Of a stretch of DNA of 64,000 bases, positions 28,204-52,272 are shown in pieces (position 1 is the first letter of the stretch; every line of letters begins with the position of its first letter). Both the position numbers and the translations under genes were made by a program. The stretch comes from Gymnodinialimonas ceratoperidinii (lineage in GTDB: Bacteria > Pseudomonadota > Alphaproteobacteria > Rhodobacterales > Rhodobacteraceae), in assembly GCF_019297855.1 (NCBI RefSeq), contig NZ_CP079194.1, positions 607,501-671,500 on the forward strand, given 5' to 3'. The notes beneath the pieces are model-generated. The model saw only the letters and a list, made by a program, of their open reading frames with translations, was not told the origin of the DNA and did not search any database.

Positions 28204-29592
28204 TCATTTCCCCAAGCCAGGGGTCACGAAACGACCGCCGCCTTGCGTGCCCGTAACCGAGCCGTCTTGGAAAACGGTAGTACCCGCCAGAATCGTCTGC
28301 ACGACGCGCCCTTGCAGGCAGCGGCCGTAGAACAGATGCGCAACTTCGCGTGCATGAGTGTGCATCGTCTCGGGGCTGAACGTCGTTTGGGCCGCGAGAT
28401 CGATAATCGTCACATCTGCGGCGCTCCCCGGTAGAAGTGCCCCTTTGTGCGGGTAAAGTCCATATCGCCGCGCACCATTTGCACAGATCAGGTCGTGGGC
28501 GCGCTTCAGGGAAAGGCGCCCCTGCGATACCGCGTCGAGCATGGCGGGCAGGATGAACTCGATCCCCGGCACGCCGGGAGGGGCGCCGGGAAAGTCGCCC
28601 TCGGCGGCCTGCTTCTCGGCCTTGGCGAAGGGGGCGTGGTCGGTGGTGACGTAGTTGATCACCCCGTCCTCGATCGCCTGCCACAGCGCGTCCTGATCCG
28701 CCTTGGTGCGGATCGGCGGGTTCACCTTGGCGTAGATGCCGGCCTTGGCGACGTCCTCTTCGGTGGCGAAGAGGTATTGCGGGCAGGTCTCGGCGGTGAA
28801 ATCCGAGGTGCCGGCGAAGGCGCGCAGCACCTCGACCGTCTCGGCGCTGGTGACATGGGCGATGTGGAGCTTGGCCTGCGCGGTGATGTTCATCGCCAGA
28901 AGCTTGGCCACGGCCACCGATTCACAGATCGCCGGGCGCGACGCGCCATGGGTCATCGCATCGGCGGGATCGAGCGCCTTGGCCTTCTCCTCGTAATGCG
29001 CCAGCAGGGCGGCGCTTTCGGCATGGACCACGATCGGCAGCCCGGTGTCGGACAGCAGCTGCAACGCGCGCATCTGGTCGGCCTCGTCGGGGAAGGCCAG
29101 GCCCTCGAACTCGTCGGCACGGCCGGCGGGCGAGGGGGTGGTGAAGATCTTCCAGGCGATATTGCCCAGGTCCATCATCTTGTCGCGGCTGGCCTCGGTC
29201 AGATCACCGGGCGCGGCGTAGAGCGCGAAGTCGATGACGGCGTTCTCGGCGAAATGATCGCGCCGCCGGGCCAGCTCTTCCGGGGTGGAGCAGCAGGGCT
29301 TGGAGATCGGCATCTCGAACAGCGTGGTGACGCCGCCGGCCGCCGCGGCACGGGTCTCTGACAGCACGGTGCCGCGCTCGGGGTAGGCCGGCGCGCGCAC
29401 GTGGAAGTGGATGTCGACGATGCCGGGCAGCACGGTCTTGCCGCCCGCATCGATGGTTTCGGCCGCGTCCGGGGCGGTGCCGGGGGCATAGACCCCCGCC
29501 ACCTTGCCGTCGGACAGGCCGAGATCGACCCGGTGCAGGCCGTCAGGCAGCAGAACCTCGCCGCCCGTGATCAGCGTGTCCAGCGCGCTCAT
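28204..29592 (-). CDS. Allantoinase/dihydropyrimidinase-like cyclic amidohydrolase
   Basis: This 462-residue amidohydrolase opens cyclic amides or ureides. The metal site is complete: DIHFHVRAP (His-x-His), the Lys to be carboxylated in NIAWKIFTTP, His in IVVHAES, His in LHIAHVTS and Asp in TTDHAPF. The overall pattern is closer to allantoinase and dihydroorotase-like enzymes than to true hydantoinase. It is the last gene of the minus-strand operon, with ATG overlapping the stop of the TIM-barrel-like gene. With Ldh2-, PuuE- and AllA-like proteins nearby it suggests a ureide or cyclic-amide intermediate. The true substrate is unknown. Confidence 0.88.
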   Translation of the reverse strand: MSALDTLITGGEVLLPDGLHRVDLGLSDGKVAGVYAPGTAPDAAETIDAGGKTVLPGIVDIHFHVRAPAYPERGTVLSETRAAAAGGVTTLFEMPISKPCCSTPEELARRRDHFAENAVIDFALYAAPGDLTEASRDKMMDLGNIAWKIFTTPSPAGRADEFEGLAFPDEADQMRALQLLSDTGLPIVVHAESAALLAHYEEKAKALDPADAMTHGASRPAICESVAVAKLLAMNITAQAKLHIAHVTSAETVEVLRAFAGTSDFTAETCPQYLFATEEDVAKAGIYAKVNPPIRTKADQDALWQAIEDGVINYVTTDHAPFAKAEKQAAEGDFPGAPPGVPGIEFILPAMLDAVSQGRLSLKRAHDLICANGARRYGLYPHKGALLPGSAADVTIIDLAAQTTFSPETMHTHAREVAHLFYGRCLQGRVVQTILAGTTVFQDGSVTGTQGGGRFVTPGLGK

Positions 29593-31019
29593 TTCAGGCC
29601 CAACTCGGTTAGGGCCTTGGCCACGCCGTCCAGGTTGGTGAGATGCATGGAGGCATAGTTCGGCGACAGCACGACGCCGTGCCCGCCCGCGCGGTAGGTC
29701 GCCATGACCGAGCGATAGGCGATGTCGGGCGTGCATTTGGCCTGATCGGCCCGGACGCGGGGCGCGTCGATGCCGAGGCCCATGAAGACCTTCGCCTTGT
29801 CGTGGACGCCCTTCAGCGCCTCGGCGCATTGGCCGTAGACGTAGGTATCGGGGTCGAGACCGTCCTGGATCACCGTGTCGATGCCCGAGCCTTGAATGCC
29901 GAGGATTCCGTCGAGGATCTTCATCGCCACTTCCGGATCGAAATCGCGCAGGATGGTCTTGTGGAAGAAGCCGAATTCCTTGTGCCAGATCTCGCCGGAC
30001 TGGTGCTGGTAGGTGATCGGCTTGACCCAATCGGCATAGCGCGTCTGCTCTTCCCACGGCCATTGGGCGCGGCGGAACAGGTTGAAATGGTTGCGGTTCC
30101 AGACGTTGAGCCCGAAGGGCAGGTTCGGCTTGCACCATTTCACGAGGCCATAGAGCTCGCGGTCGAGGTCCTTGTTGCGCTCCAGCCAGAACCGCTCCCA
30201 GATCAGGAACTCGGGGTTTTCCAGCAGCACGCGGATGAAGGTGATGAAGGCGCCGTCGTCGAACTCCTTGCCGCCGAGCGCATCCTGCATGAAGTCGTAC
30301 ATCTTAATGCAGGCACGGCGACAGGCTTCCACGTCGATGCCCCGCGCCACGGCCTCGGCACGGGCGGCTTCCGAGAAGTCGCCGGGGGCCTGACCCTGCA
30401 TCATCTGGTCGAGCGGCGAGTTGCGCTCGTTGCACCACATGATGCCGTCGATGTCGTAATTGCGCACCTGGTCCTCGATGATCGCATGCATCCAGTTGCG
30501 GTAGTCGGGGTTCGAGGTCGAGGGCTCGTCCTTGCGGACGCCGAAAACGTCGACCTCCATGCAGGAGGCGAGGTTCGGGATCTCGATGTTGTTGACCGAG
30601 CCATGACCCGCGTATTTGAAGAAGGGCTCCATCAGCTCGACGTAGACCTTCATGTCGCGTTTGTGGGCCTCGGGGATGACGAGGTCGAGAATGTCGATCC
30701 CCTCCATTTCCTTGTCGGTGGCGCGGAAGTCCTTGATCAGCGTCTTGGAGTAATAGCGCGGATCGGGGTTGTAGTAGGCGCCGCCCTTCATGGTGAAGGG
30801 CTCGGGGACGCCGTGGTCGGGCCAGCCGTCCAGCTCGTGCGCGATGGAGCGGCCGGTTTTCAGGCCAAGCCAGCTTACCGTGCCGAGCATCAGGACGTTG
30901 ACGCCGACACGATCCTTGAGGGTGTCGAGCACGGTGTCGACGCCCTCGTCGATGAAGCTGATCGGGCTGACTTGGATGCCGACGAATTTCTCGTCCGGGT
31001 TCGGGGTCATGTTACTCAT
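29589..31019 (-). CDS. TIM-barrel-like protein of unknown function
   Basis: This 476-residue cytoplasmic protein has no signal peptide. I do not recognise a named family. The opening KFVGIQVSPISFIDEGVDTVLDTLKDRVGVNVLML and later strands such as DIDGIMWCNERNSPLDQMM and LPFGLNVWNRNHFNLFRRAQW look like a TIM barrel of the glycoside-hydrolase-like superfamily, with candidate acidic residues in VYVELMEPF, WCNERNS and VIQDGLD. The gene overlaps both neighbours by ATGA, so it is a core member of the operon. Its context is amide and amino-acid chemistry rather than sugars, which makes an unusual hydrolase or isomerase possible. Confidence 0.75.
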   Translation of the reverse strand: MSNMTPNPDEKFVGIQVSPISFIDEGVDTVLDTLKDRVGVNVLMLGTVSWLGLKTGRSIAHELDGWPDHGVPEPFTMKGGAYYNPDPRYYSKTLIKDFRATDKEMEGIDILDLVIPEAHKRDMKVYVELMEPFFKYAGHGSVNNIEIPNLASCMEVDVFGVRKDEPSTSNPDYRNWMHAIIEDQVRNYDIDGIMWCNERNSPLDQMMQGQAPGDFSEAARAEAVARGIDVEACRRACIKMYDFMQDALGGKEFDDGAFITFIRVLLENPEFLIWERFWLERNKDLDRELYGLVKWCKPNLPFGLNVWNRNHFNLFRRAQWPWEEQTRYADWVKPITYQHQSGEIWHKEFGFFHKTILRDFDPEVAMKILDGILGIQGSGIDTVIQDGLDPDTYVYGQCAEALKGVHDKAKVFMGLGIDAPRVRADQAKCTPDIAYRSVMATYRAGGHGVVLSPNYASMHLTNLDGVAKALTELGLK

Positions 31020-32200
31020 GCGATGGCCTTCTTGTTGGCAGTGATGAAGCCTTGGATGCGCTGCATCGCCTCCTGAATGACGGGGAGCGGCTGCAGGTAG
31101 CTGATGCGAATGAAATCGCTGTCGGGTTCGCCGAACATGTCGCCGGGGAAGACCATGACACCGGTCTCGCGCAGCAGGTTCTCGCAGAAGGGCTTGGCCT
31201 TCATGCCGGTGCTGGAGATGTTGGTGTAGATGTAAAAGGCCCCGCCCGGTGCGCCGTAGGACAGGCCTGCCTCGGTCAGCGCGCCCATCAGGTAGTCACG
31301 CCGTTCGGCATAGTCGCGGAACGTCGCCTCCATCTCGTCCTGCGGGCCGGTCAGCGCGGCCAGCGCGGCGTGCTGCGACACCGTGCAGGTGTTGATCGAA
31401 AGCGTGTGGCGCGGTTCGGTCAGCTTTTCCACGAAGTCCGCCGGGGCGGCCATGTAGCCGACGCGCCAGCCCGTCATCGCGTAGGTCTTGGAGAACCCGT
31501 TAAGCGTGATCGTGCGTTCCTTCATGCCGGGCAGGGTCGCCAGCGACAGGTGCTCGTGACCCGGGTAGATCAGCTTGGCGTAGATCTCGTCGGCGATGAC
31601 AAGGATGTCATGCTTGATCGCCAGATCGGCGATCTTGCGGATCACCTCGGGCGGGGTCACGGCGCCGGTGGGGTTGTTGGGCGAGACCATCACGAACATC
31701 CGCGTCTTGTCGGTGATCCGCTTCTCAATCTCGTCCACGTCCAGCGCGAAATCGTCCTTCTGGAAGGTCGGCACCGGCACCGGCACGCCGCCGCAGAGGT
31801 GCACGGCGGTGTCGTAGGTGGTGAAGCGCGGCGAGGTGATCAGCACCTCGTCGCCCTCCTGCACGAGGCCCAACATGCACAGCATGATGCTTTCCTGAAC
31901 GCCGGCGGTGACGATGATTTCGTCCGCGTCGTAGTCCAGCCCGTATTCGGCCTTGAGGTTGTCGCAGATCGCCTGACGCAGGGGCGGCAGGCCGGTGGGG
32001 CCGGTGTAATGGTGCTGGTTGTCGTCCAGCGCGGCCTTGGCGGCCTCCACGATATGGGCCGGGGTGTGGAAGTCGGGATCACCGCGCCCGAGCGCGATGA
32101 CATTGTCGAGGCCGGAGGCGATCTCCAGCATCTTGGTGCGGAAGGAGCCGTCTTCCTCGACGATCCGGGGGGCGGTGCGTTGCAGCAGTAGCGAAGTCAT
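31016..32200 (-). CDS. Class I/II pyridoxal-phosphate aminotransferase
   Basis: This 394-residue fold-type I aminotransferase has the PLP Lys in NGFSKTYAMTGWRVGY (about 240), the SPNNPTGAV loop and the Asp of IADEIYAKL. It belongs to the aspartate/aromatic aminotransferase group and would move an amino group between an operon intermediate and 2-oxoglutarate or pyruvate. It is clearly paralogous to the aminotransferase encoded on the opposite arm of the island. Both ends overlap neighbours by four bases. Confidence 0.92.
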   Translation of the reverse strand: MTSLLLQRTAPRIVEEDGSFRTKMLEIASGLDNVIALGRGDPDFHTPAHIVEAAKAALDDNQHHYTGPTGLPPLRQAICDNLKAEYGLDYDADEIIVTAGVQESIMLCMLGLVQEGDEVLITSPRFTTYDTAVHLCGGVPVPVPTFQKDDFALDVDEIEKRITDKTRMFVMVSPNNPTGAVTPPEVIRKIADLAIKHDILVIADEIYAKLIYPGHEHLSLATLPGMKERTITLNGFSKTYAMTGWRVGYMAAPADFVEKLTEPRHTLSINTCTVSQHAALAALTGPQDEMEATFRDYAERRDYLMGALTEAGLSYGAPGGAFYIYTNISSTGMKAKPFCENLLRETGVMVFPGDMFGEPDSDFIRISYLQPLPVIQEAMQRIQGFITANKKAIA

Positions 32201-33426
32201 CCGTGCATCCTTTTGCCGTCGATGAAGGTCATGTCGACTTTTTCCAGTGCGGTAAGGTCCTGATCGGGCTTGCCGTCGACCACGATCATGTCGGCCAGCT
32301 TCCCGGCCTCCAGCGTGCCGAGCGTGTCGCCCATGCCGTTGAGAACGGCCGCGCGCGCGGTGATCGCACGCAGGGCATCGAGGTTGTCGGGGCAGACGCC
32401 CACTTCCACCATGAAGCCCAGTTCCGGCACGATGCGGTCATGCTCCACCGCCGGGCTGCCGGCGTCGGTGCCGAAGACGATCGGCACGCCGGCCTTGGCC
32501 GCACGCACCAGCCCGTCGAAGCGGGACTTGTCGGCCACGGCGCGCTTGCGCTCTTCGATCTTCCACTCGGGAATGCCGAAATCGCGGGCGATCTTCTCGT
32601 TGGCCTGGATCACCAGCGCCGAGAAGGTGGTGACGATGGGCAGCTTCTTGTCGAGCAAAAGCTGGATTGTCTCGTCGGTCATCGAGCCACCATGCTCGAT
32701 GCAGTCGATGCCCGCCTCGGCCACGCGCGCGATGCAGTCGTTGTAGGTCGCATGGGCCGTGATCGGCAGCTTGTTGCGGTGGGCCTCGTCGATGACGGCG
32801 TGCAGTTCCTCGTCGGTGAACTCCAGCGTGTCGTGGCAGGCCATGATCTTGATCAGGTCGGCCCCGCCCTTCACCTGATCGCGCACGGCGCGGCGCATCT
32901 CGTCGGCGCCCGAAGCCTCGCGGCAGACCCAATAGGTGTGGCCGCCGGTCTGGATGATGCTTTCACCCGACACCAGAAGGCGCGGTCCGGGGAAGATGCC
33001 CTGGGCCACGGCCTGCTTGGTGAAGAGGTTGGCGTTATGCACGCCCAGGTCGCGGACCAGCGTGATGCCGGCGCGCAGGCTCTTGATCATGTTGCCGGCC
33101 GCCTTGTAGGCGCGGATTTCCGGCGCGTCGTACATGCTCTGCTGGCTGAGTTCGTGAATGCCGTCCCACGACAGGTGCGCGTGGCTGTTCATCATGCCCG
33201 GCATCAGGGTCTTGCCCTCGGTGTCGAGGGTCTCGACGCCCTCGGGCGCCTCGGCGCGGGGGCCCACGGCGGCGATCTTGCCGTCCTTCACATGGACGAA
33301 ACCATCCTCGATGATCTCGTCACCGACGCAGGTGATGACGCGACCGAGGTAGACGCAATCCTTGGCCTCGGCCTCGAACATCGGTTTGGTTATCTTCTGG
33401 TAATGCCAAGCGGCTGGTTCGGGCAT
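32197..33426 (-). CDS. Metal-dependent amidohydrolase (imidazolonepropionase/Xaa-Pro dipeptidase-like)
   Basis: This 409-residue amidohydrolase has MMNSHAHLSWDG (His-x-His), GGADLIKIMACHD (carboxylated Lys), ITAHATYND and CIEHGGSM (two His) and FGTDAGSP (Asp), a full binuclear metal site. The GADLIKIMA block is typical of the subgroup that includes imidazolonepropionase-like enzymes and zinc prolidases acting on Xaa-Pro or Xaa-Arg/Lys dipeptides. No signal peptide is present. It overlaps the aminotransferase by four bases and follows the M24 gene by 11 bases. A peptide or amide substrate fits the context. Confidence 0.88.
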   Translation of the reverse strand: MPEPAAWHYQKITKPMFEAEAKDCVYLGRVITCVGDEIIEDGFVHVKDGKIAAVGPRAEAPEGVETLDTEGKTLMPGMMNSHAHLSWDGIHELSQQSMYDAPEIRAYKAAGNMIKSLRAGITLVRDLGVHNANLFTKQAVAQGIFPGPRLLVSGESIIQTGGHTYWVCREASGADEMRRAVRDQVKGGADLIKIMACHDTLEFTDEELHAVIDEAHRNKLPITAHATYNDCIARVAEAGIDCIEHGGSMTDETIQLLLDKKLPIVTTFSALVIQANEKIARDFGIPEWKIEERKRAVADKSRFDGLVRAAKAGVPIVFGTDAGSPAVEHDRIVPELGFMVEVGVCPDNLDALRAITARAAVLNGMGDTLGTLEAGKLADMIVVDGKPDQDLTALEKVDMTFIDGKRMHG

Positions 33427-33437: not shown

Positions 33438-34595
33438 TCAGATTGCGATGACGCGGGCGTCGATCGGGGTGGTAGCCTGGAACCGCGAGGGGATATCGAC
33501 CCCGTCGGCGGTCACGACCATCGTGTTGATCGTGCGGTATCCATCGATGCCGGGGCGGTAGACGCCCGGCTCGTTGGAGAAAATCATGTGGGTTTCGATC
33601 CTTGTGTCGTCGCCGGGTGCGAGCCAGGGGGCTTCGTGCCCCTCCAGCCCCATGCCGTGGCCGATCCGGTGGCGGATCGTGTCGCCAAGCCCGGCGTCGC
33701 GCAGGGCGTCGAGCGCGGCGTCATTGGCCTGCGTGCAGGTGGTGCGCGCGGCGAGCGCTGCGACGCCCGCGTCGTTGCAGGCCTCCATCGCCGCCATGAT
33801 CCGACGCTGCTCGGGGCTGATCTCGCCCACGATCAGCGTGACGCCGCTTTCGGCGTGATAGCCGCCGAGGCTGCCGCCGATCCCGGCGATCAGGGTCTCG
33901 CCGGCCTGCGGCACCCGTTCGAGAACGGCGCCATGGGGCAGGGCCGCGCGGGGGCCGGAATGGACCGAGGCGGTGATGCCCATCGGGGTGCCGGCGAAGG
34001 CTTCCTTGTGCTTGGCAAAGAGCGCGCCGCGGGCGTGGGCCATGGCGTCGGCCATCAAGTCGGCCTCGGTGCCGCCCTGGGAAATGATATCGCCGGCCGC
34101 CGCGTGCAGGCGGCTGAGGAAGAGGTCTGCGAAGCTGGCGGCTTCCACCGTCAGCGCGATCTCTTCGGGCTCTTTCACCGCGCGCACCGGCATGGCGTGG
34201 TCGGTCAGGTCGAGCCGCGCCAGCTTCTCGCGCGCCGCGTCCAGAAGGGCGGCGTCCAGCAGGTCGATGGCGATGGATTTGCGCCCGATCTGGTCGAGCA
34301 TCCAGAGAACGGCGGGCACCTCTCCGGGGAATTCGTCGTAGAACCGCAGGTCACGGATGCCCGTGCCCTCGGCATTCTCGCGCTCCAGCGCGGGCAACAT
34401 CAGGATCGGGTCGCCCTCGACCGGGACCCAGACGCCCATCGGCCGCTCGTTGGCCGAGAGGAACAAGCCCGTTGCATAGGCCAGGTTGGGCGCGCGCAGA
34501 AGCAGCAGGCCGTCGAGGCCCGCCGCCTGTGCCCGCGCGCGCAGACGGTCGCGCGCGCGGTCGAAGAAGGTGCTGTCCAGCGGCCGCAGGCTCAC
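33438..34595 (-). CDS. Creatinase-like M24 protein with degenerate metal site
   Basis: This 385-residue pita-bread protein has an N-terminal creatinase/prolidase domain (about 15-145) and a C-terminal M24 domain. The M24 metal ligands are Asp, Asp, His, Glu, Glu; here the first Asp is Gly (before GGYHAESG), the second is Glu, His is kept (IGHGMGLEGHEAPW), the first Glu is kept (IFSNEPGVY) and the last is replaced (DGYRTINTM). The same positions are altered in creatinase. It is therefore probably a metal-independent hydrolase of an amide or guanidino bond rather than an aminopeptidase. It overlaps the Ldh2 gene by four bases. Confidence 0.83.
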   Translation of the reverse strand: MSLRPLDSTFFDRARDRLRARAQAAGLDGLLLLRAPNLAYATGLFLSANERPMGVWVPVEGDPILMLPALERENAEGTGIRDLRFYDEFPGEVPAVLWMLDQIGRKSIAIDLLDAALLDAAREKLARLDLTDHAMPVRAVKEPEEIALTVEAASFADLFLSRLHAAAGDIISQGGTEADLMADAMAHARGALFAKHKEAFAGTPMGITASVHSGPRAALPHGAVLERVPQAGETLIAGIGGSLGGYHAESGVTLIVGEISPEQRRIMAAMEACNDAGVAALAARTTCTQANDAALDALRDAGLGDTIRHRIGHGMGLEGHEAPWLAPGDDTRIETHMIFSNEPGVYRPGIDGYRTINTMVVTADGVDIPSRFQATTPIDARVIAI

Positions 34596-35698
34596 AGGAA
34601 GTCACCGGTGTAGGGGCCAAGCTCGTCGATCGAGGTCGTCAGACCCAACTCGCGACCCAATTCCTTCATGTCGGCCAGCACCACGTTGTCGATCGGCACG
34701 CCGTTCTCGGATTTCGCCGCCGTCCGGCGGGCCTCCTGCTCGCCGGGGACCATGATCTCGTCGACGCCGGGACGCTTGGCGCGGGTCTTGGCCATCTGGA
34801 CGAACTCGCCCATCCGCTCGGCGTATTCGGCCGGGTCCATGAACCACGAGATGTCGATCGCCTGGAAGTAGTGCGAGACGTCCAGCTTCTTCGGATCGGA
34901 GTAGGGCTTCAGCCCGAAGCCGCCGCCCGAGAGCACGCCGGTCAGCGCCTCGGTCATGAAGGCGAGGCCGTAGCCCTTGTGCCCGCCGATCGCCAGAAGC
35001 GGCCCCTTCAGCGCGGCGGCCGGATCGTCGGTTTCCTCGCCGTCGGGGGTGATCGCCCAGTCCTTGGGCATCTTGCGACCCTCGCGGATCAACCAGTTCA
35101 TCATGCCCTTGCCCGCCGTCGTCAGCGCGATGTCGAGCACGGTGGGGAAGCCTTGATCCGACGGCGCGGCGATGGACCAGGGGTTGGTGCCGGTCACGCC
35201 CTCGCGCCCGCCCCAAGGGGCCATCTCGGGGCCCGCGTTGGTGAAGGCCATGCCGATGCAGCCATGCTCCAGTGCCTGGCAGGCATGCACGGCGCTGGAG
35301 CCGTAATGGGTGGAGTTGCGCACGATGACGGTGCCGATGCCGCCTTCCTTGGCCTTCTTGATCGCCAGCGACATCGCCTTGGAGGCCGCCACGGTGCCGA
35401 TGCCGTTATGGGCATCGACCAGCGCCAGCGCCGGGCCCTCCTTGACGATGGACCAATCGGCGCGGGGGTCGACCTCGCCGTTGCCGATGCGCTCGTGGTA
35501 GCGGCGCAGGCGGGCGACGCCCTGTCCCTGCCCGGGATGGAAGCGCAGTTCCGAGAAGATCAGCGCGTCGGCGAAGATGCCGGCGTCGCCCTCGGTCAGG
35601 CCGAGCGCCTCAAAGCCTTCGGAGACGAAGGCGCGCAGCTGGTCGCGGTCGACGTTGGTCATCTTGATGACGCGGGCGGGGGTCTGTTCGGTGGTCAT
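34592..35698 (-). CDS. Ldh2-family NAD(P)-dependent dehydrogenase
   Basis: This 368-residue dehydrogenase belongs to the malate/L-lactate/ureidoglycolate dehydrogenase family, which does not use a Rossmann fold. Conserved features are HYGSSAVHACQALEHGCIGMAFTNAGPEMAPWGG (active-site His and nucleotide loop), GTNPWSIAAP and GGHKGYGLAFMTEALTGVLSGGG. The family includes AllD (ureidoglycolate dehydrogenase), notable here because AllA-like and allantoinase-like proteins are encoded nearby. It oxidises a 2-hydroxy acid or reduces a 2-keto acid or imine. Both ends overlap neighbours by four bases. Confidence 0.9.
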   Translation of the reverse strand: MTTEQTPARVIKMTNVDRDQLRAFVSEGFEALGLTEGDAGIFADALIFSELRFHPGQGQGVARLRRYHERIGNGEVDPRADWSIVKEGPALALVDAHNGIGTVAASKAMSLAIKKAKEGGIGTVIVRNSTHYGSSAVHACQALEHGCIGMAFTNAGPEMAPWGGREGVTGTNPWSIAAPSDQGFPTVLDIALTTAGKGMMNWLIREGRKMPKDWAITPDGEETDDPAAALKGPLLAIGGHKGYGLAFMTEALTGVLSGGGFGLKPYSDPKKLDVSHYFQAIDISWFMDPAEYAERMGEFVQMAKTRAKRPGVDEIMVPGEQEARRTAAKSENGVPIDNVVLADMKELGRELGLTTSIDELGPYTGDFL

Positions 35699-40399: not shown

Positions 40400-40416
40400 A
40401 CCGAAGGACAACAGAG

Positions 40417-42842: not shown

Positions 42843-43327
42843 CCACGAAGCTTACCATACCCCTGCTCGCGCCGGACCCCGCTGCTTTCGCCCCCTACGG
42901 GCAGTTCGTGGCCCCGCCGGCGACCCCGGGCGAGCGGCGTTTCTACAGCGAGGTGCTTGATCGGCGTCCCGCGGGGTCGGTGCCGGTGCTGCACACCAAT
43001 CACGTGCTGCCCCAGACCCTGCCGCTCGACGTCACCCGGATCGAGAGGCACGCCCATGCGGCGCAATGCTTCATCCCTCTCGACGTGGCGCGTTACGTGG
43101 TGATGGTCATGCCCTCTGCCGCTGACGGCTCGCCCCTGCCGGAACAGGCTCTGGCGATGTTGATGCCCGGCACCATGGGCGTCGTCTTCAATCCCGGCGT
43201 CTGGCACCTCGGTGCGACCGTTCTGGATAAGGCGGCGTCTTTCACTGTGCTGATGTGGCGGGGCGGCGCCCAGGCCGACGACCAGTTCCTGACCATTCCA
43301 CCCGTGACCCTCGCGGCCCCATCCTGA
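42839..43327 (+). CDS. Ureidoglycolate lyase (AllA)-like cupin
   Basis: This 162-residue cupin resembles ureidoglycolate lyase, which releases glyoxylate and urea from ureidoglycolate. Key blocks are ERHAHAAQCFIPLDVARYVVMVMP and FNPGVWHLGATVL, including the paired metal or active-site histidines. The start ATG overlaps the PuuE-like stop, so a longer frame is rejected. With PuuE- and Ldh2-like proteins it argues for a ureide-type intermediate. Confidence 0.85.
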   Translation: MTTKLTIPLLAPDPAAFAPYGQFVAPPATPGERRFYSEVLDRRPAGSVPVLHTNHVLPQTLPLDVTRIERHAHAAQCFIPLDVARYVVMVMPSAADGSPLPEQALAMLMPGTMGVVFNPGVWHLGATVLDKAASFTVLMWRGGAQADDQFLTIPPVTLAAPS

Positions 43328-45201: not shown

Positions 45202-46247
45202 GCACCACAGAGCCCTTGCGCATCATCGTTGTCGGCCTCGGCGCGCGGGCCCGGACATGGCTGAAAGTCGTCAGCGCGAACCCCGATCTTCGTATCGTGG
45301 CGCTTTGCGATCCGGACCCCGCCGCCCGCGCGCGCGCCGCCGAGCAGTTTCCCGACGTTCCCATCGGTGCTGGACTGCCTGATGTCGTGAGCACCGAGGC
45401 CGATGCCGTCCTGCTGGCCACCCCGCCCGGCGGGCGCGAAGAGCAGATCGAGACCGCCTGCAAGGCCGGCCTCGCGATCCTCGCCGAGAAGCCGCTCTCC
45501 GACAGTGTCACCACCGCCGCGCGCTTTGTTGAAATGGCGGAAAGCGCCGGCGTGCACCTCATCGTCGGCCTGAACTTCCGCTACCTCGCCGTGACGCAGG
45601 AAATGAAGCGCCTGCTGACCTCGGGCGCCATCGGCAAGCCTGAGTTCGGGCGCTTTATCTACGAGCGTTGGCGGGACGGGACGCAGGATTGGCTGAACTC
45701 CTATCCGCTGACGATGGACCACCCGATGCTGTGGGAGCAGTCGATTCACCACTTCGACCTGATGCGCTTCGTCTATGACGCCGAACCTGCCTACGTTCAG
45801 GCCCATACCTTCAACCCCTCGTGGACGATGTACGAGGGCGACACCAACGTCGCCGCCCTGATCGGCTTCGAGGGCGGCATGCATGTCACCTACCAGGGCA
45901 CCTGGCAGGCGGGCCATGATCCGATGAACTTCAAATGGCGCACTGACGGCTCGGAAGGCATCGTCGAGCAGCGCGCCATGTTCGGAGACCTCGCCTGGGC
46001 CAAGCGGATGGACCCCGAGCTGACCCCGGTCGACCTGCCGCCCCACGAGGCGTGGATCACCGATGCGGCCGCCCTTCTGCGGAGCTTCGTGGCCACCGTG
46101 CGGGGCACCTCGGCGCCCGAATGCACCGGGCGCGATCACCTGCAATCCCTGTTCATGTTGCAAGCTTGCATCCTTGCCTCAGACCGCCGCGCGACCGTCA
46201 CCATTGACGAGATCCGCGCTCTAACCACTCCGGAGGAGACCCCATGA
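45198..46247 (+). CDS. Gfo/Idh/MocA-family oxidoreductase, copy 1
   Basis: This 349-residue NAD(P)-dependent oxidoreductase has an N-terminal Rossmann domain (IIVVGLGARARTWLKVV, near residue 9) and the EKPLSDSV motif whose Lys is catalytic. MLWEQSIHHFDLMRF is the second conserved region. Family members oxidise sugars, inositols or related polyols or reduce imines. The ATG is fixed by ATGA overlap with the epimerase stop; a second family member follows with the same overlap. Confidence 0.9.
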   Translation: MSTTEPLRIIVVGLGARARTWLKVVSANPDLRIVALCDPDPAARARAAEQFPDVPIGAGLPDVVSTEADAVLLATPPGGREEQIETACKAGLAILAEKPLSDSVTTAARFVEMAESAGVHLIVGLNFRYLAVTQEMKRLLTSGAIGKPEFGRFIYERWRDGTQDWLNSYPLTMDHPMLWEQSIHHFDLMRFVYDAEPAYVQAHTFNPSWTMYEGDTNVAALIGFEGGMHVTYQGTWQAGHDPMNFKWRTDGSEGIVEQRAMFGDLAWAKRMDPELTPVDLPPHEAWITDAAALLRSFVATVRGTSAPECTGRDHLQSLFMLQACILASDRRATVTIDEIRALTTPEETP

Positions 46248-47326
46248 TCAATGTCGGCATCATCGGCGCGAGCTTTGCGCGCGACGCCTATCTACCCGCT
46301 TTCGCCCATATCGACGACGCAAAGGTCGTGGCGCTGGCCTCGGGCCGGATCGAAAGCGCCCGCGCGGCGGCGGAACCCCACGGGATCGAGGCGGTCTACG
46401 ACGATTGGGAGAAGATGCTCGACTCCCATGACCTCGACCTCGTCTGCATCGCCACGCCCACGGTGATGCACGCGCCGATGGCGTTGAAGGCCATCGCCAA
46501 GGGCGCCCATGTGCTCTGCGAGAAGCCCACCGCGATGAACGCGGGCGAGGCGCGGGAGATGCTGGACGCGGCGCGCAAGGCCAACCGGCTGCACATGATC
46601 GACCACGAGCTGCGCTTCAACCCGACGCGCGCGCGCATTGCCGAGCTGATCCACGGCGGCGAATTGGGCGAGATCCGCCACGTCAACATCACCAACATCG
46701 GCGCGTCCTGGGCCGACCCGGCCTCGCGCCCCAAGGGCGACTGGTGGTCCGACGCCTCGATGGGCGGCGGCCGTATGGGTGCCAACGGGTCGCATCAGGT
46801 CGACATGCTGCGCTGGTGGTTGGGCGAGCCTGCCGCCGTCATCGGCCAGGCGCTGACCATCGTGCCGGACCGCATCTGCAAGAACACTGGCGAGCCATGG
46901 ACCGCGACCTCGGATGACCTCTCGCACATGACGCTGGAGATGCAGTCCGGCGCGCTGGCGCAGGTCTTCATGAGCGGCGTGGCAGCGGCCAACATGGGCA
47001 ACGAGACGCAGGTGTTCGGCTCCAAGGGCACGATCACCCTCTCGAACTCGGACGAGAAGCTCTACTTCGCCAAGGCGGGCGAAAGCTTCAAGGATATCAG
47101 CGTGGATGATCCGAACGCGCGCCTTGACGGGATCAACAAGGGCATCTGGAACGTCTCGGTTCTGGGCGCCCTGCGCGAGCTTTGCGGCGCGATCACCGAA
47201 GGCCGCGAGTTGCAGCGCGGTGCGAGCTTCGTGGACGGTCTGCGCAACCAGATGGTGGTGGACGCGGTCTTCGCTTCGACGGCCAGCCGGAAGTGGGAAG
47301 ACCTCGACATGGCGAGCGCCTCCTGA
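46244..47326 (+). CDS. Gfo/Idh/MocA-family oxidoreductase, copy 2
   Basis: This 360-residue paralog has the Rossmann motif GIIGASFARDAYLPAF, the catalytic Lys in CEKPTAMN and NGSHQVDMLRWWLGEP. It differs enough from copy 1 to suggest another substrate. Its stop shares a base with the next start (TGATG). Together with copy 1, the epimerase and the SDR it forms a set of four NAD-dependent enzymes in a row. Confidence 0.9.
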   Translation: MINVGIIGASFARDAYLPAFAHIDDAKVVALASGRIESARAAAEPHGIEAVYDDWEKMLDSHDLDLVCIATPTVMHAPMALKAIAKGAHVLCEKPTAMNAGEAREMLDAARKANRLHMIDHELRFNPTRARIAELIHGGELGEIRHVNITNIGASWADPASRPKGDWWSDASMGGGRMGANGSHQVDMLRWWLGEPAAVIGQALTIVPDRICKNTGEPWTATSDDLSHMTLEMQSGALAQVFMSGVAAANMGNETQVFGSKGTITLSNSDEKLYFAKAGESFKDISVDDPNARLDGINKGIWNVSVLGALRELCGAITEGRELQRGASFVDGLRNQMVVDAVFASTASRKWEDLDMASAS

Positions 47327-48039
47327 TGCCGGCGCTCTCTGATCAACACGTGCTGATCACCGGGGCCGCGCAGGGCCTCGGCGCGGCCATCGCGCGGGTC
47401 TTCGCGGGGCAGGGGGCGCGGCTCACCCTGATGGATGTGGACGCCGACGGGCTGGCAGCCGTCAACGACCAGCTTGGCGGGGGCGCGACGTTCATCCCCG
47501 TCGACCTCGCCGATGCCGAGGCCACCGCCCGCGCGATCGAGGCGCTGCCGGCCCCGGTCGACACGGTGATCCACAACGCTGCCATCCTGCGCCCGGAACC
47601 GCTGGAGGATGTCAGCCTCGATACATGGAGTGCGACCATGAACGTCGGCATTCAGGCCGCGTTCCTTCTGGCGAAGGCCGCCTGGCCCGCGATGAAGCAG
47701 AACGGCGGCGGAGCGCTGGTCTTCGTGTCGTCGCAATCGGGCATCAAGGGCTTCGTCGACGAAACCGCCTATTGCGCCGCCAAGCATGCGCTGGAGGGCT
47801 TCTCCAAATGCCTCGCCATGGAAGGCGAGGCCCACGGCATCATCAGCTGCACGGTCACCCCCGGCAAGCCGATGCACACGCCGATGTCCGAGCGCAACTA
47901 TCCGCCCGAGTTGAAGGCCCAATGGATCGAGCCCGAACGGCTCGCCCCCGCCTTCGCCCATATCGCCACCAGCCGGGACACGGCGCTGTCGGGCCAGCGT
48001 CTGAACGCTTGGGACTTGTCACAGGAGCATCCCCTATGA
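47326..48039 (+). CDS. Short-chain dehydrogenase/reductase
   Basis: This 237-residue classical SDR has TGAAQGLG (cofactor, residues 12-19), the NAAIL motif, Ser in VSSQSG and YCAAK (Tyr and Lys). The start ATG overlaps the previous stop as TGATG, and its own stop overlaps the M20 start as ATGA. It oxidises an alcohol or reduces a ketone; the substrate is unknown. Confidence 0.9.
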   Translation: MPALSDQHVLITGAAQGLGAAIARVFAGQGARLTLMDVDADGLAAVNDQLGGGATFIPVDLADAEATARAIEALPAPVDTVIHNAAILRPEPLEDVSLDTWSATMNVGIQAAFLLAKAAWPAMKQNGGGALVFVSSQSGIKGFVDETAYCAAKHALEGFSKCLAMEGEAHGIISCTVTPGKPMHTPMSERNYPPELKAQWIEPERLAPAFAHIATSRDTALSGQRLNAWDLSQEHPL

Positions 48040-49397
48040 GCGACATGAAAGAGATCTACGACTACATCGACGCCCACGCCGATGAATTCATCGCGGACCT
48101 GCAGGAATTCGTGCAGCAGCCTTCGATTTCCGCGCAGGACATCGGGTTGCGCGACTGCGCGGCGCTGATCCGCGACCAGATGCATCGCGACGGTCTGCCA
48201 GCCGAGTTCCACGAGCTGGAGGAGGGGCCGCCTGTCGTCTATGGCGAGGTTCCCTCGAAGTCGAAGAAGACGCTGCTGTGCTACTCCCACTACGACGTGC
48301 AGCCGCCCGAGCCCATCGAGGCGTGGAGCCACGGCGGCCCCTGGTCCGGCGCGGTGGTCGATGGCGTGCTCTACGGGCGCGGCGCCACCGACAACAAGTC
48401 CGGCGTGCTGGCCTTTAACAAGGCCGCCAAGGCCTTCCTCGCCGTCCGTGGTGAGGTGCCCGTGGGCCTGAAACTGCTGATCGAAGGGGAGGAGGAGATC
48501 GGGTCTCCGAACCTCGGCCCCTGGGCCAAGAAGAACGCGAAGATGCTGGAGGCCGACGGGATGCATTGCCTCGACGGCTCTCTCGAGGTGGGGGTGGAGG
48601 TGCCCGACGTCTCGCTCGGCCTGAAGTCCATCCTCTTCGTCGAGCTGGTCGCCCGGGGTCCCCGCACCGATGTCCACTCGCTCAACGCGCCGCTGGTGCC
48701 GAACCCGGTCTGGGACCTCGTCCATGCGCTGGCGACGATCATGGATCGCAACAAGAACATCCTGATTCCCGACTGGGCCGAGGGCATCTACGAGCCCAAC
48801 GAAGAGGATATGGGCTATCTGGAGGACAAGGCCGCCCGGATCGACTTCGACAAGCTGCGCGCCGAGGTGGGCGTCGATGAATTCGCGCTCGGCCGCGACG
48901 GGGTCGATGCCATCAAGGCCCGGACCTACGAGCCGACGGCCAACATCCAGGGCATCACCGGGGGCTACACCGGCAAGGGCACCAAGACGATCGTGCCCGC
49001 CGAGGCCCGCGTGCGGATGGATTTCCGGCTGATCCCCAACATCTCGCCCGAGAAGGCGATGGCGAAGCTGAAGGCGCATCTGAAGGCGCAGGGCTTCGAC
49101 AACATCGAGGTGAAGGGCGAGCCGCGCGTCGAAGAGCCCTACAAGATCTCGGCCCGCGAGGACATCAGCCAGTCGATCATCGCCGCCGCCCACGAGGTCT
49201 ATGGTGAGCCGCCGATCGTCAACGGTGTCTCGGCGGAGGGGGCGATCCTCAAGCACGTCTGGATTCCCTGCGTGCTGACCGGCTTCGCCAACCCCGGCTG
49301 CAACCTCCATGCCCCCGACGAGAACATCCACGTCGACAAGTACATCCAGGGCATCAAGTACGCCGCTGCGATCATGGAGCATTTCGGCCGCAGCTGA
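48036..49397 (+). CDS. M20-family metallodipeptidase
   Basis: This 453-residue zinc peptidase has the M20 set: His in CYSHYDVQP (about 84-92), Asp in GRGATDNKSG (bridging), catalytic Glu pair in EGEEEIGS and a late His in NLHAPDE. The Lap dimerisation domain lies in between (about 190-340). It resembles carnosinase-type dipeptidases rather than AllC allantoate amidohydrolase. No signal peptide is seen, so it acts on imported peptides. Confidence 0.92.
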   Translation: MSDMKEIYDYIDAHADEFIADLQEFVQQPSISAQDIGLRDCAALIRDQMHRDGLPAEFHELEEGPPVVYGEVPSKSKKTLLCYSHYDVQPPEPIEAWSHGGPWSGAVVDGVLYGRGATDNKSGVLAFNKAAKAFLAVRGEVPVGLKLLIEGEEEIGSPNLGPWAKKNAKMLEADGMHCLDGSLEVGVEVPDVSLGLKSILFVELVARGPRTDVHSLNAPLVPNPVWDLVHALATIMDRNKNILIPDWAEGIYEPNEEDMGYLEDKAARIDFDKLRAEVGVDEFALGRDGVDAIKARTYEPTANIQGITGGYTGKGTKTIVPAEARVRMDFRLIPNISPEKAMAKLKAHLKAQGFDNIEVKGEPRVEEPYKISAREDISQSIIAAAHEVYGEPPIVNGVSAEGAILKHVWIPCVLTGFANPGCNLHAPDENIHVDKYIQGIKYAAAIMEHFGRS

Positions 49398-49469
49398 CGC
49401 CCCTGCGGCCCGCCGCAACTCAAGACACGCGCGGCCCCGCCGCGACAAAGATCCGTGAAAGGACCCGCC

Positions 49470-51146
49470 ATGACCGTCAAGATCCCCTTCGACACCTACC
49501 ACGACTACGAGGCGATGACTGCGCATCTCCATGCGCTGGCCGACGCCTATCCCAAGCTCTGCACCCTGACCTCCATCGCCAAGAGCTTTCAGGGCCGCGA
49601 CGTCTGGTTCATGACCATCACCAACCCCGATACCGGCCCGATCCTCGAGAAGCCCGGCTTCTACATCGACGCCCAGATCCACGCCGAGGAACATGCCACC
49701 AGCGCCACCGCGCTCTATGCCTGCGCCTACCTGCTCAACAATTACGGCACCGACGAGGAAGTCACCCGTCTGGTCGACAGCCAGGTCTTCTACATCATTC
49801 CGCGGATCAACCCCGACGGCGCCGAATACGCGATGACCGCGCCCTACCATCCCTGGTGCGGTAACGGCCGTTGCCTACCGGGCGAGGACCGGCTCGAGGG
49901 GCTGATCCCGCAGGACATCGACGGTGACGGCTACATCGTGCAGATGCGCGTACCCGATCCCAAGGGCGAGTGGAAATGCGACGAGAAGAACCCCGACATC
50001 ATGGTCCAGCGCGAGCCGGGCGAAGAGGGGGGCGAATACTACCGCCTCTACCCCGAGGGCATGATCCGCAACTACGACGGCGTCCACGTGCATATCGAGA
50101 TGCAGCAGGACGGCAACATGAACCGGAACTTCCCCACCAACTGGACGCCGCAGGAATACGGCGCCGGGCAGTATCCGTTCTCCGAGCCGGAAACGGCGGG
50201 CATGCGTCAGGTGATCCTCGATCATCCCAACATCACCGGCATGTGCGCCTATCACACCCATGGTGGCATCATCCTGCGGCCCTCGATGCTGCAGATGGAC
50301 AGCGAGATGAGCCCGCCGGACCTCTCGCTCTACAAGGCTCTGGGCGAGGTCGGTGAGAAGCTGACCGGCTATCCTACGATCTCGGTCTACGAGGAGTTCA
50401 CGCCGGACAAATCCAAGGCCCGCCACGGCACCCTGACCGACTGGACCTACGAGGAAATGGGGATCATCTCCTTCGGCACCGAGCTCTGGGATCTGGAGCG
50501 CACCGCAGGCGTGCCCAAGGAAGGCTACTACAACCTCGGGCCGCGCGATGCCGAGACGCAGCGGCTGGTGCACGATTGGGTAGTGGAGAACGTGGGCGAT
50601 CACGGCTTCCGCCCGTGGAAGAGCTTCGATCACCCGCAGCTTGGTCCCATCGAGGTTGGCGGCATGGTCTACATCTGGAGCTACCGCAACCCGCCCGGCA
50701 AACTTCTAGAAGAAATGTGCCACAACAACGTGCTGTTCAACCTCCGCCACGCCGCCGCCGCGCCGCGGATCGAGATTGACACGGTGGAGGTCGAGGCCCT
50801 CGGCGGTGATCTGCACAAGGTCACGGCGGTGGTCTCCAACCACGGCTACCTGCCTACGAACCTCTCGGACGTGGCGATCCAGAACAAGGTCGCCAAGCCG
50901 GTGACGGTGACACTCGATTGCGAGAACGCGGAGCTGACGATGAACCCCGAGCATGTGAAGCTCGGCAACCTCGCCGGTCGCAACGAACGCCGCTATGCTT
51001 ATTCCAACTGGGGTCAGCAATGGTCTCCGGTGACGAAGAAGGTGGAATGGCTGGTCCGCTCGAAGGGCGCCGACGCCAAGGTCACGGTGACCGCCGCGTC
51101 CGAGAAGGGCGGCACCGACCGCAGCAGCGTCGCCCTCGGCGCCTGA
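49470..51146 (+). CDS. M14-family zinc carboxypeptidase
   Basis: This 558-residue protein has an M14 carboxypeptidase domain (about 10-390) and a C-terminal beta-rich domain. Zinc ligands are His and Glu in DAQIHAEEHATS and His in CAYHTHGG; the catalytic Glu is in FGTELWDLE. An insert with NGRCLPGEDRLEGLIPQDIDGDGYI is Asp-rich and could bind calcium. No signal peptide is visible, unlike many secreted M14 enzymes, which points to a cytoplasmic job on imported peptides. The ATG with GAAAGGA before it is chosen. Confidence 0.92.
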   Translation: MTVKIPFDTYHDYEAMTAHLHALADAYPKLCTLTSIAKSFQGRDVWFMTITNPDTGPILEKPGFYIDAQIHAEEHATSATALYACAYLLNNYGTDEEVTRLVDSQVFYIIPRINPDGAEYAMTAPYHPWCGNGRCLPGEDRLEGLIPQDIDGDGYIVQMRVPDPKGEWKCDEKNPDIMVQREPGEEGGEYYRLYPEGMIRNYDGVHVHIEMQQDGNMNRNFPTNWTPQEYGAGQYPFSEPETAGMRQVILDHPNITGMCAYHTHGGIILRPSMLQMDSEMSPPDLSLYKALGEVGEKLTGYPTISVYEEFTPDKSKARHGTLTDWTYEEMGIISFGTELWDLERTAGVPKEGYYNLGPRDAETQRLVHDWVVENVGDHGFRPWKSFDHPQLGPIEVGGMVYIWSYRNPPGKLLEEMCHNNVLFNLRHAAAAPRIEIDTVEVEALGGDLHKVTAVVSNHGYLPTNLSDVAIQNKVAKPVTVTLDCENAELTMNPEHVKLGNLAGRNERRYAYSNWGQQWSPVTKKVEWLVRSKGADAKVTVTAASEKGGTDRSSVALGA

Positions 51147-51175: not shown

Positions 51176-51252
51176 TCCCCGATACGCCCATCGGGGGCCA
51201 CGGGCACTCCCGGCACCGCGCTGCATGACGATATCGCAAGAGGGAGAGCACC

Positions 51253-52272
51253 ATGGCCTATGCGCGCACCTTCGATGGCCCCGATTTCGCGCCGGACTTA
51301 GCCGCGCTCTTCCGCCATCAATTGGCCGCCTGTGCCCTTGCGCCGGACGAGCTTTGCCTCTGCGTCACCGACACCGCGTGGTCACCCACCTACGCCAGCG
51401 CCTGCATGGGGGCCGCGCGGGCGCTTGGGGCGGAGGCGGTGCAGGTCACCTTCGCCTGGGACAGCCCGCCCGATGCTCGTGCGCTGGCCGCGCTCTGCGA
51501 GGCGGCGGACCTGATCGTCTACATGTGCGGCCATGCGCTCCATTATCGGCCTGAAATCAAGGCCGCCCTCGACCGAGGCGCGCGGGTCCTCTGTTGCATG
51601 GAGCCGCCCAATGTCCTCGACCGTCTTCGCTTCGATCCCGACGTTCGGTCTGCCGCGCGCGCCGGGGCAAAACGGCTCGACGCGGCCCGAGAAATCCGCA
51701 TCACCTCGCCCGCGGGCACTGATCTGCGGATGGACAAGACCGGCCGCGCGGGGCTTGCCGTCTACGGTGCGGCGGATCGGGCCGGAAAGCTCGACTTCTG
51801 GGGCATCGGCGCGGTGCAAGCGGCACAGCTTGAAGGCACGACCGAGGGGCGTCTGGTGCTCGATGTCGGCGACAGCATCTTCCAGCTCGCCCGCTACGTG
51901 GAGGCGCCGGTCTCGATCCAATTCGAGGCGGGTCGGGTCACCGCGCTGGACGGCGGCCTTGACGCCAGACTGATCCGCGATGTGCTGGACGCCGCAGGCG
52001 ACGCGGGGGCGTGGAACGCCGGCCACATGGGGTGGGGCGTCGACCCCCGCGCGCTCTGGACGCAACCGATGACCCAGGCGCCCAACGCCGGGGGCGGCGG
52101 CGCGGACGTCGAAAGCTTTGCCGGCGCGGTTCAGGTGCAACTGGGCAGCAACGACGACGTCGCCTTTGGCGGCCGCAACCGAAGCCGCGCCCATCTGGGC
52201 CTCTGCTTGCGAGGCGCAAGCCTGTTCCTTGATGGGGCCCCCATGGTGGTGGACGGAGCCGTGATTTCGTAA
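51253..52272 (+). CDS. NicX/M29-like metal-dependent protein
   Basis: This 339-residue protein resembles 2,5-dihydroxypyridine dioxygenase NicX, which shares the M29 aminopeptidase fold. Shared blocks are CCMEPPNVLDRL, LVLDVGDSIFQLARY, GHMGWGVDPRALW and AHLGLCLRGASLFLD. In NicX the iron is held by two His and an Asp; the first His (GHMGW) and second His (AHLG) are kept but the Asp two residues later is Gly. Activity may therefore differ. It lies at the end of the plus arm, separated by a hairpin and 106 bases, with its own GAGGGAGAG ribosome site. Confidence 0.72.
   Translation: MAYARTFDGPDFAPDLAALFRHQLAACALAPDELCLCVTDTAWSPTYASACMGAARALGAEAVQVTFAWDSPPDARALAALCEAADLIVYMCGHALHYRPEIKAALDRGARVLCCMEPPNVLDRLRFDPDVRSAARAGAKRLDAAREIRITSPAGTDLRMDKTGRAGLAVYGAADRAGKLDFWGIGAVQAAQLEGTTEGRLVLDVGDSIFQLARYVEAPVSIQFEAGRVTALDGGLDARLIRDVLDAAGDAGAWNAGHMGWGVDPRALWTQPMTQAPNAGGGGADVESFAGAVQVQLGSNDDVAFGGRNRSRAHLGLCLRGASLFLDGAPMVVDGAVIS

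What the first reader, a model, noticed from the sequence alone, without database searches (positions are those of the whole stretch)
28204..52272. Divergent catabolic island joining peptidases with ureide-type enzymes: candidate undescribed pathway
Two long operons of overlapping genes diverge from one promoter region. They combine four peptidase-type families (M32, M20, M14, AspA-like), a creatinase-like M24, two amidohydrolases, two DUF4438 proteins and a TIM-barrel protein of unknown role with relatives of four ureide-pathway enzymes (allantoinase-like, PuuE-like, AllA-like, Ldh2/AllD-like). Two aminotransferases, an aldolase and four NAD-dependent enzymes complete it. No known pathway that I can name uses this set. 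I infer import of a peptide or amide conjugate, stepwise hydrolysis, then deamination and cleavage to central metabolites.
Basis: inference. Interest (0 to 1): 0.85.

Follow-up and report, generated by a model that had tools for sequence, protein, structure and literature searches.

The report
GntR-controlled sugar/peptide catabolic island
A block of about 27 genes with a predicted shared switch, found in bacteria of several phyla, looks like a complete import-and-breakdown system for an unidentified compound that may join amino acids to a sugar.

Summary
In detail: two operons diverge at 37439-37656 and encode the listed families, with corrected starts. The unit is larger: an Opp-type importer and an FCD-GntR regulator (17085-24104) belong to it. 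Whole or partial versions lie at 80 loci in alpha-proteobacteria, Chloroflexota and Trueperaceae; DUF4438 and the TIM barrel occur in the same 10 of 101 relatives. New here: the palindrome TTGTCGACAA, perfect or with one mismatch, lies in three promoter regions of the unit and upstream of DUF4438a in 51 of 79 loci. The TIM model resembles glycoside hydrolases; M24 lacks three of five metal ligands. The four 'ureide' proteins miss every NCBIfam ureide cut-off; PuuE and AllA are missing within the flanks of 21 of 21 long loci of two of the groups, so ureide chemistry is unlikely to be the core. Best reading: uptake and breakdown of a conjugate of amino acids with a sugar or sugar acid. Substrate, operator binding and the role of the DUF4438 pair remain unproven.

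The parts
17085..18740 (-). OppA-type solute-binding protein (SBP_bac_5)
   Evidence: Pfam PF00496; its homologue cluster C10 is in 51 of 81 sets, 80 loci plus window
18780..19496 (-). FCD-type GntR regulator, candidate regulator of the unit
   Evidence: Pfam FCD + GntR; homologue of 28-66% identity in 36 of 80 loci
19679..19688 (.). operator candidate TTGTCGACAA upstream of GntR, downstream of OppF
19805..20893 (-). OppF-type ATPase
   Evidence: Pfam ABC_tran + oligo_HPY
20770..21834 (-). OppD-type ATPase
   Evidence: Pfam ABC_tran + oligo_HPY
21992..22001 (.). operator candidate CTGTCGACAA between divergent OppD and OppB
   Evidence: a site lies in the same intergenic region in G014 (L126:3593)
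22178..23152 (+). OppB-type permease
23166..24104 (+). OppC-type permease
24433..26319 (-). MsbA-like ABC exporter half 1, accessory, membership uncertain
   Evidence: close relatives in only some loci
26316..28148 (-). MsbA-like ABC exporter half 2, accessory, membership uncertain
28204..29592 (-). AmhA: hydantoinase/allantoinase-like amidohydrolase
   Evidence: Pfam PF01979; best PDB L-hydantoinase 1gkr
29589..31019 (-). TIM: glycoside-hydrolase-like TIM barrel
   Evidence: AlphaFold model pLDDT 89.1; PDB neighbours Cwp19, PgaB C-term, GH42, GH164
31016..32200 (-). AT1: class I aminotransferase
32197..33426 (-). AmhB: amidohydrolase, nearest NCBIfam model an Xaa-Pro dipeptidase
33438..34595 (-). 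M24 'pita-bread' protein lacking three of five metal ligands
34592..35698 (-). Ldh2-family 2-hydroxyacid dehydrogenase
35695..36573 (-). DUF4438b
36575..37438 (-). DUF4438a
37439..37656 (.). divergent promoter region with operator candidate TTGTCGACAT at 37527-37536
37657..39183 (+). M32 carboxypeptidase, HEXXH motif present
39200..40399 (+). AT2: class I aminotransferase
40396..40908 (+). VOC-fold protein, methylmalonyl-CoA-epimerase-like
40905..41903 (+). AstE/AspA-type deacylase, DoeB-like
41931..42842 (+). PuuE-like hydrolase
42779..43327 (+). AllA-like protein (start uncertain)
43367..44269 (+). DHDPS/NAL-family aldolase
44266..45201 (+). NAD-dependent epimerase/dehydratase
45198..46247 (+). 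GfoA: Gfo/Idh/MocA oxidoreductase
46244..47326 (+). GfoB: Gfo/Idh/MocA oxidoreductase
47329..48039 (+). SDR oxidoreductase (start uncertain)
48036..49397 (+). M20 dipeptidase-like
49455..51146 (+). M14 zinc carboxypeptidase
51253..52272 (+). 339-aa protein, no family match, membership uncertain

Best explanation
This is one coordinated catabolic unit. The FCD-type GntR protein (18780-19496) binds TTGTCGACAA-type palindromes at its own promoter, at the OppD/OppB promoter and at the central divergent promoter, and the substrate or an intermediate relieves it. The Opp transporter imports a conjugate that contains amide-linked amino acid(s) and a sugar or sugar acid. Hydrolases take it apart: M32, M14, M20 and AmhB cleave peptide or imide bonds; the metal-poor M24 protein and AmhA open amide, amidine or cyclic amide bonds; AspA, PuuE and AllA remove further acyl or amide groups in the full alpha-proteobacterial version; the TIM barrel cleaves the glycosidic bond. 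AT1/AT2 deaminate the released amino acids and Ldh2 interconverts 2-oxo and 2-hydroxy acids. GfoA/GfoB, the NAD epimerase, the SDR and the DHDPS-family aldolase oxidise and split the sugar part. The DUF4438 a+b pair is the signature component and probably acts on the sugar-acid branch. Shown by computation: gene content, conservation, co-occurrence, shared motif, fold of the TIM model, loss of metal ligands in M24. Inferred: operator binding, every reaction, substrate class, order of steps, DUF4438 role.
For: Co-inheritance: identical 10 of 101 relatives for DUF4438a and TIM; synteny in 64 loci of at least 18 kb out of 80; correlated distances. Regulation: TTGTCGACA 5 matches in the window against 0.44 expected (the palindrome at 19679 counts on both strands, and one match, 62805, lies in another ORF); TTGTCGACAWT at 4 places in the 3.62-Mb genome, 2 of them here; motif with 0 or 1 mismatch upstream of DUF4438a in 51 of 79 loci, including 13 of 15 Chloroflexota loci, in 9 of which a GntR gene starts within about 400 nt on the other side; at both promoters where the operon is interrupted (L055); and, with one mismatch, beside a second GntR on the separate contig that carries TIM, AmhB, AmhA, GfoA and GfoB in G350. 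Sugar side: TIM fold neighbours are glycoside hydrolases; Glu198 is invariant in 32 of 32 sequences at the end of strand 4; in the two of five distant TIM loci whose neighbours I scanned (L164, L165) a sugar-type ABC binding protein lies near; a distant DUF4438 pair (L176) lies with Gfo/Idh/MocA, 2-hydroxyacid dehydrogenase, SDR and KDPG-aldolase-family genes. Amino-acid side: peptidase and aminotransferase families; AmhB's best NCBIfam model is an Xaa-Pro dipeptidase (215 bits, cut-off 500) and M24's PDB matches are mostly proline dipeptidases and aminopeptidase P types; a TIM homologue lies in a Granulicella operon with an aminopeptidase P and a 4-hydroxyproline-epimerase-like gene.
Against: No substrate is known. 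None of the NCBIfam matches shown for the unit's proteins (at most 25 per protein) reaches its cut-off, so every reaction is inferred from family. The TIM alignment shows no conserved acid at the usual strand-7 position, so glycosidase activity is not assured, and a fold match shows no function. Opp-type importers also carry non-peptides; the binding protein's best PDB matches are mixed (YliB, nickel, heme, dipeptide, agrocinopine). In the phylum draw 9 of the 11 genomes with DUF4438 have no TIM match; those are single copies or distant pairs. Single DUF4438 genes lie beside SelB and beside a molybdenum hydroxylase, so DUF4438 is not tied to sugars everywhere. The 14 AG-type/marine loci have neither motif (best 3-4 mismatches) nor GntR in the stretch held. 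Five loci have a GntR homologue but no motif.
Confidence: 0.4

Rival explanations
1. The unit degrades proline- or hydroxyproline-containing (imino) peptides; the sugar-like enzymes handle hydroxyproline glycosides or act on hydroxy-acids rather than sugars.
For: AmhB's best NCBIfam model is an Xaa-Pro dipeptidase, M24's PDB matches are mostly proline dipeptidases and aminopeptidase P types; a 31% TIM homologue lies near aminopeptidase P, a peptidylprolyl isomerase and a 4-hydroxyproline-epimerase-like gene in Granulicella; the DHDPS family includes hydroxyproline-pathway deaminases (recalled).
Against: No proline racemase family match among the 30 proteins scanned; M24 lacks metal ligands that true prolidases need; AmhB's PDB matches are mixed, including arginine carboxypeptidase and ochratoxinase types; hydantoinase, PuuE and AllA types are not explained.
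Confidence: 0.2
2. A ureide/hydantoin or cyclic amide pathway, as the first reader leaned towards: ring opening by AmhA/PuuE, then removal of urea-like groups by the creatinase-like M24 and AllA.
For: AmhA, PuuE, AllA and Ldh2 families; M24 is metal-poor, as recalled for creatinase and ectoine hydrolase; L106 has a PuuE homologue directly after DUF4438b.
Against: None reaches an NCBIfam ureide cut-off; PuuE and AllA missing in 21 of 21 AG-type/marine and Chloroflexota loci of at least 18 kb (within 10-kb flanks); the glycosidase-like barrel, sugar-type dehydrogenases and peptidases are not needed for it.
Confidence: 0.15
3. Several neighbouring modules, each with its own transporter and substrate, brought under one regulator, rather than one pathway.
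For: In Microvirga the D4438-Ldh2, VOC-AspA-PuuE and TIM-AmhB-AT1-GfoA blocks each sit with Opp genes of their own; an Opp-TIM-AT1-GfoA block occurs without DUF4438 in the genome of G188.
Against: In the window and in the long AG-type/marine loci only one Opp set lies in the unit; distances of all blocks correlate; the same order recurs.
Confidence: 0.15

Closest known systems
Ectoine degradation cluster (doe/eut)
   Same: M24-type hydrolase plus AstE/AspA-type deacylase plus aminotransferase; AspA's best PDB matches are DoeB-type deacetylases
   Different: M24 scores 37 bits against a cut-off of 613 for DoeA and AspA 98 against 403 for DoeB; much larger set; AspA missing in several versions
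Ureide (allantoin) catabolism
   Same: Family resemblance of AmhA, PuuE, AllA, Ldh2
   Different: All below NCBIfam ureide cut-offs; the M20 protein matches dipeptidase models and no allantoate amidohydrolase model is among the 25 shown; PuuE and AllA not in every version
Hydroxyproline degradation operons
   Same: DHDPS-family enzyme; TIM homologue and aminopeptidase P in the Granulicella operon
   Different: No proline racemase/epimerase family match among the 30 proteins
Oxidative sugar catabolic clusters with Gfo/Idh/MocA dehydrogenases
   Same: Glycoside-hydrolase-like protein, Gfo dehydrogenases, epimerase, DHDPS-family aldolase, GntR regulator
   Different: Carries M32, M20, M14 and M24-family proteins, two aminotransferases and two amidohydrolases, and an Opp-type importer

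Membership tests
Allantoinase AllB (TIGR03178) | score at or above curated cut-off | tested here: not met
   AmhA 290.6 bits against 357.85
Allantoinase PuuE (TIGR03212) | score at or above curated cut-off | tested here: not met
   354.2 bits against 424.6
Ureidoglycolate lyase AllA | NCBIfam curated cut-off | tested here: not met
   best 62.9 against 160; Pfam PF04115 is met, 62.3 against 23, so superfamily only
Ureidoglycolate dehydrogenase AllD (TIGR03175) | score at or above curated cut-off | tested here: not met
   157.3 against 496.2
DUF4438 (PF14505 + PF20999) | both domains over cut-off | tested here: met
M24 metallopeptidase (dinuclear metal site) | five metal ligands conserved | tested here: not met
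   two Asp and the last Glu replaced in all 8 island sequences aligned; His and Glu kept (ligand identities recalled)
Ectoine hydrolase DoeA / deacetylase DoeB | score at or above curated cut-off | tested here: not met
   37.2 against 613; 98.2 against 402.7
GHL10 glycoside-hydrolase-like family (PF02638) | score at or above cut-off | tested here: not met
   21.8 bits against 27.9; some close homologues are labelled PF02638 in the protein database
Glycoside hydrolase | glycosidic bond cleavage | not testable with these tools
   fold of the model is consistent, activity unknown
FCD-type GntR regulator | GntR HTH plus FCD domain | tested here: met
   62.6 against 27 and 74.2 against 24.3

The most novel reading that the evidence does not exclude
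An undescribed catabolic system, spread across phyla with its own regulator and operator, feeds on a widely available conjugate of amino acids and a sugar. Its signature is a paired DUF4438 enzyme with new chemistry on the sugar-acid part, a metal-free M24 hydrolase and a new glycoside-hydrolase-like family.
Probability: 0.4. Interest if true: 0.78.

Novelty: new variant of a known kind. Interest (0 to 1): 0.6.

Why it matters
Versions of the same unit occur in Rhodobacteraceae, Rhizobiales, Trueperaceae and Chloroflexota, with the same motif upstream of DUF4438a in 51 of the 65 such loci assessed, and, without the motif, in low-GC alpha-proteobacterial records of the AG series (from memory: single-cell genomes from sea water) and a Pelagibacteraceae MAG (GC 0.29-0.32 in the six loci measured). 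If the reading is right, it marks a common, unidentified nutrient and gives a route to the function of DUF4438, whose structure (TM1086) was released in 2008 and for which two searches of the library found no function (listings only). The motif and OppA make the substrate question directly testable.

Tried and rejected
Diketopiperazine degradation was considered; one combined literature search found nothing and no gene tests it. Peptidoglycan (muropeptide) use was considered because Cwp19 heads the TIM fold matches; not taken as main reading because I saw none of the usual recycling families (recalled) among the scanned proteins, and a fold match shows no function. Mycosporine-like amino acids and glycated peptides remain possible substrates by chemistry only. 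Guanitoxin-type GntC: AT1 346.7 and AT2 317.4 bits against 415, not met.

The first neighbourhood table keeps weak paralogue matches to ABC1/ABC2; these were discarded below 60% identity. The class draw of 289 genomes found DUF4438 only in the window's own genome, so it gave rarity but no synteny.
Full report
What is there. The window is G000:C1:607501-671500 of a one-contig 3.62-Mb genome. The closest DUF4438a places in named records are Roseicyclus-type and other Rhodobacteraceae. The reported genes are present. The minus operon runs DUF4438a, DUF4438b, Ldh2, M24, AmhB, AT1, TIM, AmhA. The plus operon runs M32, AT2, VOC, AspA, PuuE, AllA, DHDPS, NAD epimerase, GfoA, GfoB, SDR, M20, M14 and an unassigned 339-aa protein. 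Corrected starts are in the observation check. An Opp importer and an FCD-GntR regulator lie at 17085-24104.

Is it a unit? A scan of one genome per species with DUF4438a gave 95 confirmed places; the best 80 were kept, 64 of them at least 18 kb long. Counts below are; groups were assigned by me from record titles, identity thresholds differ by gene, and flanks end at 10 kb, so absences of outer genes are lower bounds. In the 19 long loci nearest to the window, 19 of 19 have DUF4438a/b, Ldh2, M24, AmhB, AT1, TIM, AmhA, M32, AT2, VOC, AspA, PuuE, AllA, NAD epimerase and GfoA; DHDPS is in 15, GfoB in 12, SDR in 9, OppC in 9, OppB in 8, M20 in 3, M14 in 0. In 22 long loci of other alpha-proteobacteria DUF4438a/b are in 22, Ldh2 and AllA in 21, AmhB, AT1, TIM, AmhA, M32, AT2, VOC, AspA and PuuE in 19, NAD epimerase and GfoA in 18, M24 in 17, DHDPS in 12, and the outer genes in 2 or 3. 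In 11 long loci of the AG series and like marine alpha records, 11 of 11 have DUF4438a/b, Ldh2, M24, AmhB, AT1, TIM, AmhA, M32, AT2, VOC, GfoA, OppB and OppC, 10 have GfoB, the NAD epimerase matches only at 21-23% identity, and AspA, PuuE, AllA, DHDPS, SDR, M20 and M14 are in 0; the shorter locus L106 of this group does hold PuuE (45%). In 10 long Chloroflexota loci, 10 have DUF4438a/b, Ldh2, VOC, OppB and OppC; M24, AmhA, GfoA, M14, NAD epimerase and SDR are in 5, TIM and GfoB in 4, AmhB and AspA in 1, M32, PuuE, AllA and DHDPS in 0. DUF4438 is tandem in 79 of 80 loci.

Co-occurrence. DUF4438a and TIM occur in the same 10 of 101 relatives and are both missing from the other 91; within the genus they are in 8 of 13. 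In 289 genomes of the class DUF4438 was in 1, the window's own; TIM was in 5: the window's own, G188 (63%), a distant one in G287 (27%) and two marginal. In 251 genomes of the phylum of L079 DUF4438 was in 11 (5 with two matches) and TIM in 9 (6 above 350 bits); both were in 2, the two with the closest TIM relatives, one of them the centre genome itself. So 9 DUF4438 genomes there, with single copies or distant pairs, have no TIM. All 7 genomes that I chose because a locus with DUF4438 lies in them also hold TIM, in one case on another contig.

Transfer. The Tabrizicola MAG and Reyranella MAG versions are 94-97% identical in three proteins, while the Tabrizicola and Roseicyclus MAG versions are 62-69% identical. 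With the patchy distribution this argues for horizontal transfer of the whole unit, although misbinning of metagenome contigs cannot be excluded. Distance matrices of 17 proteins correlate with DUF4438a (r 0.60 for AT1, 0.67 for TIM, 0.82-0.94 for the rest; 30-78 loci each). Vertical descent alone would also give correlations.

Regulation. Aligning the divergent promoter of 19 loci and the window showed a conserved block with the palindrome. TTGTCGACA occurs at 19679, 21993, 37527 and 62805 in the window; the first three are intergenic, at GntR, OppD/OppB and DUF4438a/M32, and the last lies in another ORF (62324-62902). Expected number 0.44; no shuffle of 100 reached 5. In the whole genome TTGTCGACAWT has 4 places, 2 of them in the unit. 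Upstream of DUF4438a 29 of 79 loci have the perfect 10-mer and 22 have one mismatch; 28 have two to four, among them all 14 AG-type/marine loci (53 of 79 at or below 0.05 against shuffles of single bases). A GntR homologue (28-66% identity) was found within 36 of 80 loci, 31 of them with a motif and 5 without; 22 loci have a motif without a GntR in the stretch held, 21 of them from the group nearest to the window, where as in the window it may lie beyond 10 kb; 22 have neither. In G014, another genus, sites lie at the same three kinds of place. In L055, where the operon is interrupted, each half has a perfect site. In G350 the part on a second contig has its own GntR (42%) next to TTGTCTACAA. 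Binding itself is not shown.

Clues from partial versions. G188 has OppC, TIM, AT1, GfoA, OppD/F and an aldo-keto reductase in one stretch. Of five fetched loci with distant TIM homologues in the phylum of L079 (L164-L168), I scanned neighbours in two: both have a sugar-type binding protein; L165 also an amidohydrolase and an enolase-superfamily gene, L164 also a GHL6 protein. A distant DUF4438 pair (L176) lies with Gfo/Idh/MocA, 2-hydroxyacid dehydrogenase, SDR and a KDPG-aldolase-family gene; L177 and L178 share Gfo-like genes. Against a general sugar role, single DUF4438 genes lie beside SelB (L171) and a molybdenum hydroxylase (L172). The TIM homologue of Granulicella lies near a 4-hydroxyproline-epimerase-like gene (403.8 bits, cut-off 442), a DHDPS-family gene, an M1 peptidase and aminopeptidase P; Parabacteroides has two TIM homologues side by side next to TonB-receptor/SusD-type genes.

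Conclusion. The unit is real, coherent and larger than reported, with a candidate regulon that has travelled with it. The ureide reading is weakened, because PuuE and AllA are not in every version and no protein passes an NCBIfam ureide cut-off. The mixture of peptidases, aminotransferases and amidohydrolases with a glycoside-hydrolase-like barrel, sugar-type dehydrogenases and an aldolase is best explained by a substrate that joins amino acids to a sugar or sugar acid. That step is inference, and I put it at 0.4. I found no description of the unit in the library searched; most subscription papers are not in it.

Noticed in passing
14510-15829: A second, separate M24 protein (Pfam) that also lacks the metal ligands in the alignment and, from memory, looks like creatinase; beside it an AraC-type regulator with a DJ-1 domain (15876-17021). 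No NCBIfam match at 1e-30.
   Followed up: partly
12220-13389: 4-hydroxybenzoate 3-monooxygenase over its curated cut-off (685.4 against 538.7).
   Followed up: no
54050-55742: Two-gene tartrate dehydratase/fumarase-type hydro-lyase just beyond the island, after a LysR regulator and a TauE-type exporter.
   Followed up: no
1-1899: End of an rRNA operon (23S end, 5S) and tRNA-Met at the left edge of the window.
   Followed up: no
36575-37579: The 47-codon upstream extension of DUF4438a is conserved DNA but carries stop codons in G002 and G006, so it is more likely promoter than protein.
   Followed up: yes
L044:1-20891: Record titled Enemella evansiae (actinobacterium) carries a Rhodobacteraceae-like island (49-87% identity); one protein source names the same sequence Ponticoccus gilvus, so the label is probably wrong.
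   Followed up: partly
L107:7443-10476: Parabacteroides distasonis plasmid with two neighbouring TIM homologues of about 30% identity next to TonB/SusD-type genes and a glycerate kinase.
   Followed up: partly
51253-52272: 339-aa protein without Pfam or NCBIfam match; from memory its C-terminus recalls the NicX/M29 type, not tested.
   Followed up: no
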